Positions 8,157-22,930 of a stretch of DNA of 36,233 nt are shown in pieces. A program made the translations under genes and the position numbers. The DNA comes from Actinomycetota bacterium (GTDB taxonomy: Bacteria; Actinomycetota; Thermoleophilia; Solirubrobacterales; JACPNS01). How positions within the stretch are numbered: position 1 is the stretch's first letter; every line of letters starts with the position of its first letter. The notes under the pieces are model-generated. The model saw only the letters and a list, made by a program, of their open reading frames with translations. It was not told the DNA's origin and made no database searches. The DNA lies in NCBI GenBank assembly GCA_016219715.1, contig JACRKX010000001.1:1-36233 (forward strand), read 5' to 3'.

Positions 8157-8819
8157 ATGTTCACGCCGGAAGAACTGATGGCCGTGGAGCCGGCCGCCTT
8201 CGCCACCGCGGTGGCCGCCGCGCCGGATCATGAACTCGCCGAAGGCATGGCGACAGAATTCAGGGTGATCGTCCTCGACGAGGTCTTTCGCCGCATGGAG
8301 GCGCACTTCGAACCGAAGAGATCGAAGAAGCTCAACATCGTCATCCAGTTTCACCTGACCGGATCTCACGACGGCAACGTCGACGTCTACCAGGTGATCA
8401 TCCGCGACGACCGCTGCGCGACCGGAAAGGAGTTGACCGAGCCGGCCAAGCTGACCCTGCGACTCGACGCGGTCGACTTCCTGAAGTTGGCGACCAACAA
8501 CGAGAAAGGCATGGACCTTTACATCAAAGGCCGGCTGAAGGTCGACGGCAACCTGATCCTGGCAACTCGACTTCAGGGACTGTTCCTGATTCCCGACGCC
8601 GATTCAGCCGCACCGGCCCCGCCGGCGACAACGGCTTCCGCGGCAACCGATTCCGCACCGGCCGCCGGCACCCCCGCGCCAGCGGCTCCTGCGAGTGCCA
8701 CCACCTCCACGTCCCCGGCGGCATCCGCCCCGGCGCCTCAATCGGCCACCCCCACCCCGGGAGCGGGCGACCTCGGCACAGGACCCGACGAATCCAAGGA
8801 GCAGATGCAAGATGCCTGA
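8157..8819 (+). CDS. SCP2 sterol/lipid-binding domain protein with Ala/Pro/Thr-rich C-terminal tail
   Basis: FHLTGSHDGNVDVYQVIIRDDRCATGKELTEPAKLTLRLDAVDFLKLATNNEKGMDLYIKGRLKVDGNLILATRLQGLF resembles SCP2 folds; ~75-aa low-complexity tail follows. Confidence 0.75.
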   Translation: MFTPEELMAVEPAAFATAVAAAPDHELAEGMATEFRVIVLDEVFRRMEAHFEPKRSKKLNIVIQFHLTGSHDGNVDVYQVIIRDDRCATGKELTEPAKLTLRLDAVDFLKLATNNEKGMDLYIKGRLKVDGNLILATRLQGLFLIPDADSAAPAPPATTASAATDSAPAAGTPAPAAPASATTSTSPAASAPAPQSATPTPGAGDLGTGPDESKEQMQDA

Positions 8820-9885
8820 GAACGGAAACGGTTCGAATGCCTCCCAGCGCCAGCTGGCGATGGTGTTCAACCTCGACAAGTGCATCGGATGCCAGGGCTG
8901 TACGGTGTCCTGCCGCACGCACTGGAAGGTCGATCGCCCCGGCGCCGATCACATCTACAACATCTGGTGCGAAACCAAGCCCGGCGAAGGCTGGCCCAAG
9001 GGCTGGATGGACATCGGCCGCAAGAAGCCTGACTGGGTGCGCGACTACGGCGGAAGCTGGAAGTTCAACATCGAAGAGGTCTTCAACTCGCCGGCCGGGC
9101 AGGAGTACCTGCACCCCGTCGCGGAGGAGACCGGCGAGCCTGTCAAGTACGGCCCGGTGTGGGACGAGGACCGCGGCGGCGGAGAGTGGCCCAACGGCTA
9201 CTTCTTCTACATGCCGCGCATGTGCAACCACTGCACCGATGCGCCCTGTATCACTGCTTGCGAGGAGTACTGCACTCGTCACGACAAGCCAGTCGCGATG
9301 ACCAAGCGTGCCTCAGACGGCATCGTCTCGATCGACCCCGACAAGTGCCTCGACTGCCACATGTGCATCGCGGCCTGCCCGTACCAGATCCCGATGGAGA
9401 ACCTCGAGACGAAGTCCTACGAGATGTGCGACCTGTGCGTCTCGCGCGTGGACAAGGATTTCGCGCCGGTCTGTGCCAAGAGCTGCCCGGCACGCGCGAT
9501 GTACTTCGGATACCTCGACGATCCGGACAGCTACGTCTCGAAGCTCGTGAACGAGTACAAGGTCGCCCTGCCGCTGCGGCCCGACTTCGAGACCGGCCCG
9601 AACGTGTTCTACATCCCGCCGTTCATCCGGCCGAACAAGATCACCCTGGATCACGAAATCCTTCCCGACAAGGACCTTCCGATCGAGCTGCTGCGCGAGT
9701 ACTTCGGCCCCGGTGTGGATCAAGCGCTGGACACGCTAAATGAACACCGCGAAGCCGCCAGAAACGGCGAGGAGTCGGAGCTGATGGACATGTTGATCAT
9801 CTACAGCTTCGCCGACGCGTTTACCCCGTTCGACGTCATCGCTCCTTTGGAGCCAGTTCAAGTGGAGGCCGCAGATGGGCAATGA
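8812..9885 (+). CDS. Type II DMSO-reductase-family beta (electron transfer) subunit, four Fe-S cluster motifs
   Basis: From ATG 8812: CIGCQGCTVSCRTHW, CNHCTDAPCITAC, CLDCHMCIAACPYQIP, CDLCVSRVDKDFAPVCAKSCPARAMYFG; NarH/EbdB-like layout. Confidence 0.88.
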   Translation: MPENGNGSNASQRQLAMVFNLDKCIGCQGCTVSCRTHWKVDRPGADHIYNIWCETKPGEGWPKGWMDIGRKKPDWVRDYGGSWKFNIEEVFNSPAGQEYLHPVAEETGEPVKYGPVWDEDRGGGEWPNGYFFYMPRMCNHCTDAPCITACEEYCTRHDKPVAMTKRASDGIVSIDPDKCLDCHMCIAACPYQIPMENLETKSYEMCDLCVSRVDKDFAPVCAKSCPARAMYFGYLDDPDSYVSKLVNEYKVALPLRPDFETGPNVFYIPPFIRPNKITLDHEILPDKDLPIELLREYFGPGVDQALDTLNEHREAARNGEESELMDMLIIYSFADAFTPFDVIAPLEPVQVEAADGQ

Positions 9886-20536: not shown

Positions 20537-22080
20537 CGACTCCCCACCGGTACACGCGCGGCGGTGACCTCGCGATGGCGATCGGTCACTTCCGGCCGCG
20601 GCAACACCGACATCGCGTGCTCTGCCACGAGCCCCTCGAAGACCTCGAGCCTGTTGAGCTGGTTGGTGCCCTCATAGATCTGGGTCAGCTTCGCGTCGCG
20701 CATGCACTTCTCGAGCTCCGGTCGCAGCGCTCCACAATCGAGCCCGGCGATCTCGAGTGCCATACCGGTCACCCGCATCGCGGCGTCGCTGCCGCACGCC
20801 TTAGCCATCGAGGAAAGGCCGAGCGTGCGGGTCAGCCCACGATTTCCGACCTTACGCGTCATCGCCTCCATCACCATGCCACGGCCGACCTTCGTATCCA
20901 TCGAGCGGCGAACGAGTGAGTTGTCGCGCAGCGCGGACGGCAGGCGGCCGAAGGCACGCATCGCCGGCGCTCCTGAGAGACTTCCGACCGAGAAGGTGTC
21001 GAAGTGCGTGGCCGCGTCGATGTACGCCTGGCGCGCCAGGTGAATCTCCTCTTTCATCTTCGCAAGCGCGATCTGCACCTGCTGGCGTTCCAGCAATCCC
21101 GCCGCCGCCGGATCTTCACGCAGCCAGTCGAGCAAGCGTTCGTAAGCGCCACGGGCAATGCCGGTGCCGATCGCGCCAACCGGGGGTCGCGACGCGGCGA
21201 GCACGGCGATCGTCAGCGCCATGCCGTCACCGGGTCTGCCAATCACATTGCGGTCGGAAACAAAGACCTCGTCGAACTTCAGCTCGGCGGCCGGCGACGC
21301 CCGGTGTCCCATCTTGTGCTCGCAGCGGACCACGCTGAAACCCGGACTACGAGAGTCGACGAGAAATGCGGTCAGCGTTTCGTATGGCCGCCGCGGGTCG
21401 GTCGCCATGAACACCGTGAGCCAGGTCGCCACGTTGCCGTTGGAGATGAAGTGCTTCGTGCCTGACAGCAGCCAGCCGCCGTCGGTGCGGTCGGCGCGGG
21501 TGACGGTCTGGGCCGCGTGCATCCACACGTGATGCTCTACGTCGGTGCCGGCCGTCGGCTCTGTGATGCAAAAGGCCATTATCTGCGGCCGTGGATCCGC
21601 AACGCTGCTGGCCGCCTCTTTCAGCGCCCCCTCCCAGCACGCGGGTCCGCCCATCACCAGTGGCGACGCGCCGAGCGAGTGAGCTCCGAACAACGTCGCG
21701 AAGCCACCGCATCCTGCCGCGAGTTCCTCGCTGATCAGCGCGGCCCGCAGGCAGGCCCAGTCGACAGGGCCTCCTGCCGCACGTGGAGTGACGATGCTGA
21801 GCAGGCCCAATTTGCCGCCTTCACGCACGACGTCCCAGGCAAAGTTGCCTGGCTCGTCTAGCGCGATGCGGTCGAACTCGAGCGCCCGCGGTCTGATCGT
21901 GCGCAGCGAGAACTCGCGAGCGGTTCGAAGATCGGCCTCCAGCTCCGCGAGCCTGCGTCCCGAGAGCAGCGGATGACCACCGACGCGCGGCGCGCGCTCG
22001 CGCAGTGTCTCCACCCGGTGATGTGCGCTGTGCGCTTGCATAACGTACCCCGACCGGACCTCAGGGCGACCCGACGGCAT
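20533..22080 (-). CDS. Acyl-CoA dehydrogenase family protein
   Basis: MAFCITEPTAGTDVEHH, GWLLSGTKHFISNGNVATWLTVF, GHRASPAAELKFDEVFV, LTQIYEGTNQLNRLEVFEGL. Alternative start at 22041. Confidence 0.88.
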   Translation of the reverse strand: MPSGRPEVRSGYVMQAHSAHHRVETLRERAPRVGGHPLLSGRRLAELEADLRTAREFSLRTIRPRALEFDRIALDEPGNFAWDVVREGGKLGLLSIVTPRAAGGPVDWACLRAALISEELAAGCGGFATLFGAHSLGASPLVMGGPACWEGALKEAASSVADPRPQIMAFCITEPTAGTDVEHHVWMHAAQTVTRADRTDGGWLLSGTKHFISNGNVATWLTVFMATDPRRPYETLTAFLVDSRSPGFSVVRCEHKMGHRASPAAELKFDEVFVSDRNVIGRPGDGMALTIAVLAASRPPVGAIGTGIARGAYERLLDWLREDPAAAGLLERQQVQIALAKMKEEIHLARQAYIDAATHFDTFSVGSLSGAPAMRAFGRLPSALRDNSLVRRSMDTKVGRGMVMEAMTRKVGNRGLTRTLGLSSMAKACGSDAAMRVTGMALEIAGLDCGALRPELEKCMRDAKLTQIYEGTNQLNRLEVFEGLVAEHAMSVLPRPEVTDRHREVTAARVPVGSR

Positions 22081-22930
22081 TCTTCGCGCGGACGCGCGAG
22101 CTCTTGCCGTTGTCGGAGCCGCCGCCGGCTTCGGTGGACGAGGCCATCTGGATGAAGTGCGAACTCACGTTTTCAGGGCCAAACAGGATGCCCTGCATGC
22201 TTGGCGAGTAAGCAGCCGCAACCGATCGCGTCGACAGCAGGACATCTTCGAGCTCTCGCGCTATCGGATGGCGATCGCCGAGTTCGAGCACGGAAGTTCC
22301 GGGCTTCAACGACTGCCCGGAGTTTTGCTGCCGCAGCTTGAACTCACCGCGCTGAGGTTGCCCGTCCTGGAAGACGTGCGTAAAGAGCTGTGTCGTCTCG
22401 CTGCGGTCGCTCTCGATCCGCCGGGTGCGCATCGTCAAGATCCGTTCGCCCTGATCGGAGAGCCGGCAGGTGCGGGTAACGGCATCCTGCTCGAACTCGA
22501 TCGGCGCCACGAACTTCGGGTAGTTCCACAACTCGCGCCCGGCCTTCAACGCCAGTTCCGTGGTGACTGGAAGGTGCCACACGTAACCGTCGATCTGGCC
22601 GCGCAATGCCCCGCCGAGCATCGCGCGCGCCGGCAGGTTCACACGGTGGTGTGGATAGTTGAGCGCGATCGCGATCGCCAGCTCGTTGTACGAGCCCACA
22701 TCGCTGTCGCGGTACTCGAAGCAGGCGATCGAAACGGCGCCTACCCCGGGCGCAAGGCGAGCAGGCTCGAGCCTGCGGTCGGGCAGATACCGCCTCAACC
22801 GGCTGAGCCTGGCCGGAAATACACCGCTCATCGACTCGCCATCGCGATAGAAGATCGGCAGCTTCACCAGATCGCCCCGCAGATCGATCTCGGCCTGACG
22901 GACACCTTCGAAGAACTTCGAAGTCTTCAT
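22061..22930 (-). CDS. Acetoacetate decarboxylase-like (ADC superfamily) protein
   Basis: KLPIFYRDGESMSGVFPARLSRLRRYLPD...YRDSDVGSYNELAIAIAL...LPVTTELALKAGRELWNYPKFVAPIEFE, ADC-superfamily pattern. Confidence 0.72.
   Translation of the reverse strand: MKTSKFFEGVRQAEIDLRGDLVKLPIFYRDGESMSGVFPARLSRLRRYLPDRRLEPARLAPGVGAVSIACFEYRDSDVGSYNELAIAIALNYPHHRVNLPARAMLGGALRGQIDGYVWHLPVTTELALKAGRELWNYPKFVAPIEFEQDAVTRTCRLSDQGERILTMRTRRIESDRSETTQLFTHVFQDGQPQRGEFKLRQQNSGQSLKPGTSVLELGDRHPIARELEDVLLSTRSVAAAYSPSMQGILFGPENVSSHFIQMASSTEAGGGSDNGKSSRVRAKNAVGSP

What the first reader, a model, noticed from the sequence alone, without database searches (positions are those of the whole stretch)
8157..22930. Candidate undescribed pathway: Mo-enzyme + two radical SAMs + U32 + SCP2 + ligase-like trio facing an ADC/ACAD/YbaB operon
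Sequence shows a tightly packed + strand set (SCP2 protein, Fe-S beta, type II DMSOR alpha, three ANL-like proteins, U32 protein, small membrane protein, two MqnC/CofH-like radical SAMs) converging on a - strand set (ADC-like, acyl-CoA dehydrogenase-like, YbaB-like). Established: type II DMSOR enzymes include O2-independent C-H hydroxylases (ethylbenzene dehydrogenase, steroid C25 dehydrogenase); SCP2 domains bind lipids; PaaK-type ligases activate carboxylates; ACAD and ADC folds act on acyl or beta-keto intermediates. Inference: an O2-independent pathway that oxidises or builds a hydrophobic substrate (terpenoid, sterol, aromatic or quinone-like) presented by the SCP2 protein. I do not recognise this gene combination as a named pathway.
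Basis: partly seen in the sequence, partly recalled or inferred. Interest (0 to 1): 0.85.

Follow-up and report, generated by a model that had tools for sequence, protein, structure and literature searches.

The report
Undescribed oxygen-free oxidation gene cluster
A block of ten bacterial genes, kept together in unrelated soil and groundwater bacteria, appears to encode an undescribed pathway that oxidises a greasy molecule without using oxygen, including a new branch of radical enzymes related to vitamin K makers.

Summary
The plus-strand set (SCP2, Fe-S beta, type II DMSOR alpha, three ligase-fold proteins, U32, CopD-like membrane protein, two MqnC-like radical SAMs) is a real operon. It recurs in Actinomycetota, Binatota/Myxococcota-type, gamma- and alphaproteobacterial MAGs at about 40-93% identity. 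The radical SAMs form a clade (100/100) apart from MqnC, MqnE and CofH. The U32 protein falls in a clade (100/99) with extra cysteines. The Mo alpha keeps the ethylbenzene dehydrogenase Mo-ligand Asp and active-site Lys, but has no Tat signal and no gamma subunit. In one gammaproteobacterium the module runs straight into mqnE-A-C-D, and in the closest relative a second clade member sits in a futalosine operon. The facing minus-strand ADC/ACAD genes belong to an independent ADC-ACAD-ACAD2 module: 16 of 399 class genomes carry ADC, only two of these with the cluster, and they lie elsewhere in the sister genome. They are not shown to be part of the system. Most likely function: O2-independent oxidative tailoring of an SCP2-bound hydrophobic acyl or quinone-like substrate. 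Substrate and direction remain inference. No described pathway with this gene set was found in the open literature searched.

The parts
8157..8819 (+). SCP2-domain lipid-carrier-like protein with Ala/Pro-rich tail
   Evidence: PF02036 50 bits; 61% in L021; an SCP2-domain protein also precedes beta in Binatus
8812..9885 (+). MoB: Fe-S electron-transfer beta subunit, type II DMSOR
   Evidence: TIGR03478 320 bits; Fer4_11
9875..12763 (+). MoA: type II DMSOR molybdopterin alpha subunit, no Tat signal
   Evidence: TIGR03479 707 bits; EbdA 2ivf 517 bits; D190 and K418 invariant in 10 homologues
12828..14045 (+). ANL_N: adenylating-enzyme-fold protein without the usual A3 loop
   Evidence: AlphaFold2 model pLDDT 79; Foldseek MenE 5buq E 3e-22; sequence
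14042..14728 (+). c6: half-PaaK-fold protein with invariant C166-x2-C169-x3-H173 and C209
   Evidence: model pLDDT 90; Foldseek PaaK1 2y27 E 9e-9
14725..16005 (+). ANL_C: PaaK-like CoA ligase, apparently catalytically competent
   Evidence: NCBIfam PaaK/FlxY-type matches, motifs in sequence, start
16002..17171 (+). U32 oxidase-like protein, eight conserved Cys
   Evidence: PF01136; 126 homologues; Cys invariance; clade
17172..17702 (+). CopD-like four-TM membrane protein with one invariant His
   Evidence: PF05425 below cut-off; alignment
17758..18945 (+). rSAM1: diverged duplicate of rSAM2
   Evidence: 59% to rSAM2, sister in tree, branch 1.02 vs 0.20; CX3CX2C kept
18942..20156 (+). rSAM2: new clade of CofH/MqnC-type radical SAM enzymes
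   Evidence: TIGR03699 300 bits vs cut-off 428; clade 100/100
20198..20536 (-). YbaB-like; facing set, not shown to belong
   Evidence: PF02575 62 bits
20533..22080 (-). acyl-CoA dehydrogenase-like (515 aa); part of an independent ADC-ACAD module
   Evidence: elsewhere in G002; without the cluster in other genomes
22061..22930 (-). acetoacetate-decarboxylase-like; part of an independent ADC-ACAD module
   Evidence: PF06314 63 bits; 16 of 399 class genomes

Best explanation
It is a horizontally spread operon for an O2-independent oxidative pathway acting on a hydrophobic carboxylic-acid or quinone-like molecule. Shown: the genes form one conserved module whose core is three ANL-fold proteins, a U32 protein and a membrane protein, joined in clade I by a cytoplasmic Mo alpha-beta enzyme and, in most copies, a new CofH/MqnC-type radical SAM enzyme; an SCP2-domain protein is present in the window, L021 and two Binatus-type clusters. 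Inferred steps: SCP2 carries the substrate; ANL_C, with the two degenerate ANL partners as structural subunits, activates its carboxylate; MoAB hydroxylates a C-H with water and passes electrons through the Fe-S beta subunit and the CopD-like protein to the quinone pool; the U32 protein adds a further oxygen from an organic donor, as UbiU/UbiV do with prephenate; the radical SAM enzyme forms or rearranges a carbon framework, as MqnC and MqnE do. I lean slightly to assembly or tailoring of an aromatic or quinonoid lipid rather than breakdown for energy.
For: Synteny across Actinomycetota, Binatota/Myxococcota-type, gamma- and alphaproteobacterial MAGs. Co-location on metagenome contigs. SCP2 is present in two Binatus-type clusters too. 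In three sister U32 clades (each 98-100% supported), U32 associates with type II DMSOR genes in two and with the ANL trio plus CopD in two; in L034 and L041 the alpha gene overlaps U32 by 4 bases. EbdA Mo ligand D223 and active-site K450 are kept as D190 and K418. U32 oxidases are O2-independent hydroxylases linked to prephenate (PMC11574389). Links to naphthoquinone chemistry: L023 CopD is followed after 38 bases by mqnE-mqnA-mqnC-mqnD; G002 has a second clade member directly before mqnE-mqnA-mqnC and an adenosine deaminase. The radical SAM superfamily is otherwise one of cofactor biosynthesis (own knowledge).
Against: No prenyltransferase, UbiD or UbiE was seen beside it. Most cluster genomes already encode MenB. 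Mo C-H hydroxylases of this family are known from catabolism (PMC6016249). The Rhodobacter copy lacks the Mo genes, the gamma copy lacks the novel radical SAM, and L028 lacks any radical SAM. The CopD match is below Pfam's cut-off and heme binding is untested. Substrate and reaction order have no direct evidence.
Confidence: 0.37

Rival explanations
1. It is a catabolic route: anaerobic or micro-oxic breakdown of a sterol, terpenoid, carotenoid or similar hydrophobic compound. The Mo enzyme hydroxylates an unactivated C-H, ligases form CoA thioesters, and acyl-CoA enzymes degrade them.
For: Mo-array relatives hold several alpha paralogues in tandem, as sterol degraders do (PMC6016249). Cluster II lies beside a thiolase and a CoA-transferase pair. 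Binatus clusters carry two CrtO/CrtI-type flavoproteins, SCP2 and DUF1329. ADC-ACAD modules lie near nitrate reductase or Moco genes in G000, G002 and two other genomes.
Against: The MqnC-type radical SAM has no known catabolic role and is the gene most constant outside the core. The alpha subunit lacks the Tat signal and gamma subunit of S25DH and EbDH. No kinase, 3-ketosteroid dehydrogenase or complete beta-oxidation set is conserved with it. ADC/ACAD is not linked to the cluster.
Confidence: 0.33
2. It makes or modifies a naphthoquinone specifically: the new radical SAM acts on a futalosine-pathway intermediate, and U32 plus MoAB hydroxylate the ring or prenyl chain, giving a new quinone.
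For: Direct continuity with mqnE-A-C-D in L023 and a clade member inside the mqn operon of G002. Analogy of SCP2 plus U32 with UbiT-UbiU-UbiV. G002 has MenB as well as futalosine genes, so its futalosine set may serve something other than menaquinone.
Against: Most carriers have no futalosine genes. No quinone-ring or prenyl enzymes lie in the cluster. Use of CoA ligases and a Mo hydroxylase would be without precedent.
Confidence: 0.15
3. The Mo enzyme is a respiratory or detoxifying oxidoreductase (nitrate- or perchlorate-type), and the other genes are its maturation factors or unrelated neighbours.
For: The alpha subunit also matches PcrA (338 bits) and NarG (144 bits). Moco and Nitr_red_assoc genes are nearby in Binatus-type clusters.
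Against: The best match is EbdA by about 180 bits, with its active-site Lys kept. No membrane cytochrome of NarI type. The Rhodobacter copy keeps everything except the Mo genes, so the core does not exist to serve the Mo enzyme.
Confidence: 0.1

Closest known systems
UbiT-UbiU-UbiV O2-independent ubiquinone hydroxylation
   Same: SCP2 protein plus U32 Fe-S oxidase-like protein in one locus; O2-independent chemistry on a hydrophobic substrate likely
   Different: Only one U32 protein, 19 bits to the UbiU model (cut-off 440); Cys spacing CX3C-X25-CX3C plus a C-terminal CX3CX2CX2C instead of CX6CX15CX3C; ligases, Mo enzyme and radical SAM added
Ethylbenzene dehydrogenase / steroid C25 dehydrogenase (type II DMSOR hydroxylases)
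   Same: Alpha and beta subunits with Mo-ligand Asp and EbdA K450 equivalent
   Different: No Tat signal, no heme-b gamma subunit and no chaperone gene in the cluster; scores 541 against the EbdA equivalog cut-off of 2000
Futalosine pathway radical SAMs MqnC and MqnE (and CofH)
   Same: Same radical SAM superfamily with CofH/MqnC C-terminal domain; twice found beside mqn genes
   Different: Separate clade (100/100) and well below every equivalog cut-off; most carriers have no other mqn genes
PaaK-type aryl-CoA ligases (PaaK, FlxY, DVU_1553 family)
   Same: ANL_C has PaaK-like sequence and motifs; c6 has half the PaaK fold
   Different: Encoded as three separate ANL-fold proteins, two of them lacking the adenylation loop

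Membership tests
MqnC (cyclic dehypoxanthinyl futalosine synthase) | TIGR03699 score at or above 428 bits | tested here: not met
   282 and 300 bits; true MqnC in L023 and G002 score 454 and 457
MqnC (cyclic dehypoxanthinyl futalosine synthase) | Genome encodes the rest of the futalosine pathway (MqnA, MqnD, MqnE) | tested here: not met
   None in G000 (MAG, 86% complete) nor in most carriers
MqnE / CofH | TIGR03700 434.6 or TIGR03551 374 bits; position in tree | tested here: not met
   236 and 195 bits at best; separate clade
U32 oxidases (UbiU, UbiV, TrhP, RlhA) | CX6CX15CX3C four-Cys motif | tested here: not met
   Four Cys present but spaced CX3C-X25-CX3C; a further CX3CX2CX2C is invariant in 27 of 27 (motif from PMC11574389)
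UbiU | NF047963 score at or above 440 bits | tested here: not met
   19 bits
U32 oxidases (UbiU, UbiV, TrhP, RlhA) | Bound [4Fe-4S] cluster and prephenate-dependent hydroxylation | not testable with these tools
   needs protein biochemistry
EbDH/S25DH-type hydroxylase | Mo-ligand Asp and active-site Lys (EbdA D223, K450) | tested here: met
   D190 and K418 invariant
EbDH/S25DH-type hydroxylase | Tat signal, heme-b gamma subunit, chaperone gene | tested here: not met
   No twin Arg in the N-terminus; no gamma or chaperone ORF in the operon; S25DH features from PMC6016249
EbDH/S25DH-type hydroxylase | Water-dependent C-H hydroxylation activity | not testable with these tools
   needs enzyme assay
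ANL adenylating enzymes / PaaK | ANL fold | tested here: met
   Foldseek for ANL_N and c6; sequence models for ANL_C
ANL adenylating enzymes / PaaK | A3 phosphate-binding loop, in each protein | tested here: inconclusive
   By eye: present in ANL_C (STRGTSGEP), not recognisable in ANL_N or c6

The most novel reading that the evidence does not exclude
A previously undescribed O2-free pathway in which a water-using Mo hydroxylase, an organic-oxygen-donor U32 oxidase and a new radical SAM enzyme act in series on an SCP2-bound, CoA-activated hydrophobic molecule to make a new quinone-like or isoprenoid-derived redox lipid, spread between phyla by horizontal transfer.
Probability: 0.3. Interest if true: 0.9.

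Novelty: new variant of a known kind. Interest (0 to 1): 0.7.

Why it matters
If right, it joins three different ways of oxidising carbon without O2 in one operon and adds an unassigned branch to the small CofH/MqnE/MqnC radical SAM group, whose known members all make essential cofactors. It gives a defined gene set that can be expressed and tested, and it predicts either a new lipid or quinone or a new anaerobic degradation route in uncultured soil and groundwater bacteria.

Tried and rejected
Canonical MqnC, MqnE or CofH for the radical SAMs: rejected by scores and tree. A dedicated menaquinone pathway in these hosts: most carriers encode MenB, and G000 shows neither MenB above cut-off nor MqnA (MAG incomplete). 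The ADC/ACAD/YbaB set as part of the pathway: first seen in only the two cluster-bearing genomes of the genus, which looked like co-inheritance; the class-wide search then found the ADC-ACAD-ACAD2 trio in many cluster-free genomes, so the idea was dropped. The split PEP synthase as a phenylphosphate-synthase-like partner: it looks like an interrupted ordinary PEP synthase. Plasmid records hold no close relatives. Literature searches for the gene combination found nothing relevant (open-access papers only). Marinithermus has a distant member of the radical SAM clade, but its neighbourhood could not be fetched.
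Full report
WHAT IS THERE. The ten plus-strand genes from 8157 to 20156 are real and tightly packed. Corrected starts: beta 8812, third ligase-like gene 14042, PaaK-like gene ATG 14725, first radical SAM ATG 17758. Most junctions overlap by 4-11 bases or abut; the larger gaps are 64 bases before ANL_N and 55 before rSAM1. 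The two uncertain ligase-like proteins were modelled: c6 (no Pfam match) at pLDDT 90 matches about half of PaaK (2y27, E 9e-9), and ANL_N at pLDDT 79 matches the N-domain of MenE and other ANL enzymes (E 3e-22). By eye only ANL_C has a recognisable phosphate-binding loop.

IT IS A CONSERVED MODULE. A genome scan with the U32 family, followed by comparison of the flanks, shows the same order in L021 (Actinomycetota, the same locus as G002 contig 27), L022, L025, L026, L027 and L029 (Binatus and related 'Deltaproteobacteria' MAGs, often with two or three alpha genes plus MoaA and, in several, DUF1329), L023 (gammaproteobacterium), L030 (Myxococcota by the tool's label) and L040 (Rhodobacter MAG, without the Mo genes and with ANL_N and U32 broken by frameshifts). 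L028 keeps c6-ANL_C-U32-CopD but no radical SAM. An SCP2 protein and two CrtO/CrtI-type flavoproteins precede the beta gene in G064 and G066. Exact contig-length matches between independent searches give 20 shared U32/rSAM, 19 U32/ANL_N and 12 rSAM/ANL_N contigs, against 1, 0 and 1 near misses. The radical SAM clade is rare: 2 of 399 genomes of the class, 1 of 399 of the phylum, 3 of 248 in another phylum. This fits an accessory operon spread horizontally.

THE ENZYMES ARE NEW SUBFAMILIES. The radical SAMs form one clade (100/100) apart from MqnC, MqnE and CofH; the window's two copies are sister duplicates, the first on a long branch. They keep CX3CX2C but miss every equivalog cut-off. The U32 protein has eight near-invariant cysteines: CX3C-X25-CX3C in the barrel and CX3CX2CX2C near the C-terminus, against CX6CX15CX3C described for U32 oxidases (PMC11574389). 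A U32 tree gives three fully supported sister clades that match three neighbourhood types: I, this cluster; II, ANL trio plus CopD with thiolase and a CoA-transferase pair; and a 'Mo array' type with several alpha genes. In the Mo arrays the alpha and U32 genes overlap by four bases. U32 is thus tied to Mo enzymes in two clades and to the ANL trio in two. The Mo alpha is closest to EbdA among solved structures and keeps the Mo-ligand Asp and the equivalent of K450. It has no Tat signal, and no gamma subunit or chaperone lies in the operon, unlike S25DH (PMC6016249), so it is probably a cytoplasmic alpha-beta enzyme.

LINKS TO QUINONE CHEMISTRY. In L023 the membrane-protein gene is followed after 38 bases by mqnE, mqnA, mqnC and mqnD. 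In G002 a second member of the new radical SAM clade directly precedes mqnE, mqnA, mqnC and an adenosine deaminase. All other carriers tested lack MqnA/D and MqnC; most have MenB. G002 has both MenB and futalosine genes.

THE FACING GENES. ADC and ACAD in the window have relatives in G002 on another contig, after MoaA and MobA, and a second pair in G000 also follows Moco genes. Within the genus only these two genomes have ADC, which at first suggested co-inheritance. Across 399 genomes of the class, ADC occurs in 16, and only two of these have the cluster; the trio ADC-ACAD-ACAD2 stands alone in most, beside NarG or Moco genes in a few. The facing set is therefore an independent module that happens to lie here; a functional link is not excluded but not shown.

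MECHANISM. Shown: conserved operon, folds, retained metal-ligand motifs. Inferred: SCP2 presents a hydrophobic substrate; ANL_C activates a carboxylate; MoAB hydroxylates with water and feeds electrons to the membrane through CopD; U32 adds an oxygen from an organic donor; the radical SAM forms or rearranges the carbon frame. I lean slightly to synthesis or tailoring of a quinone-like or aromatic lipid because all known relatives of the radical SAM make cofactors and because of the two mqn associations. A catabolic route for sterols, terpenoids or carotenoids is nearly as likely because of the Mo arrays, the thiolase and CoA-transferase neighbours of cluster II, and the flavoproteins of Binatus.

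NOVELTY. No paper found in the open library describes the combination; subscription papers and preprints were not searchable. The families are known, so I rate it a new variant of a known kind (O2-independent oxidation of hydrophobic molecules), with a substantial chance that it is something categorically new.

Noticed in passing
window 675-3007 +: PEP synthase split into two ORFs in different frames, with part of the C-terminal domain missing between them; looks like an internal deletion plus frameshift (pseudogene or assembly error).
   Followed up: partly
window 3063-7808 + and about 27369-28253 +: Suf Fe-S assembly operon (Rrf2, SufC, SufD-type, SufS, SufU, 4HBT) just upstream of the cluster, with a second SufBD-core ORF about 20 kb away; this neighbourhood was not seen beside the cluster in G002.
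   Followed up: partly
L031-L035, L041: 'Deltaproteobacteria' MAGs with up to five tandem type II DMSOR alpha genes without evident Tat signals, a NarJ-like chaperone and a U32 gene overlapping an alpha gene by 4 bases: a second undescribed Mo/U32 association.
   Followed up: partly
L037 8595-20075, L054, L030: A sister cluster (ANL trio, U32, CopD) beside a thiolase, a glutaconate/IpdAB-type CoA-transferase pair, a nitroreductase (L030) and a family of about 460 aa (c12) with no Pfam or clear PDB match.
   Followed up: partly
L158-L170, L146, L147: A three-gene ADC-ACAD-ACAD2 module in many genomes of the class, sometimes beside NarG or molybdenum-cofactor genes; function unassigned.
   Followed up: partly
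L104 (Bacillus wiedmannii plasmid) 12004-17903: U32 gene beside aminodeoxychorismate synthase and mutase genes, suggesting an amino-prephenate-type oxygen donor or a biosynthetic cluster.
   Followed up: no
G002 C2:30164-36024 (L101 8164-14024): A genome with both MenB and a futalosine operon that contains a member of the new radical SAM clade.
   Followed up: partly
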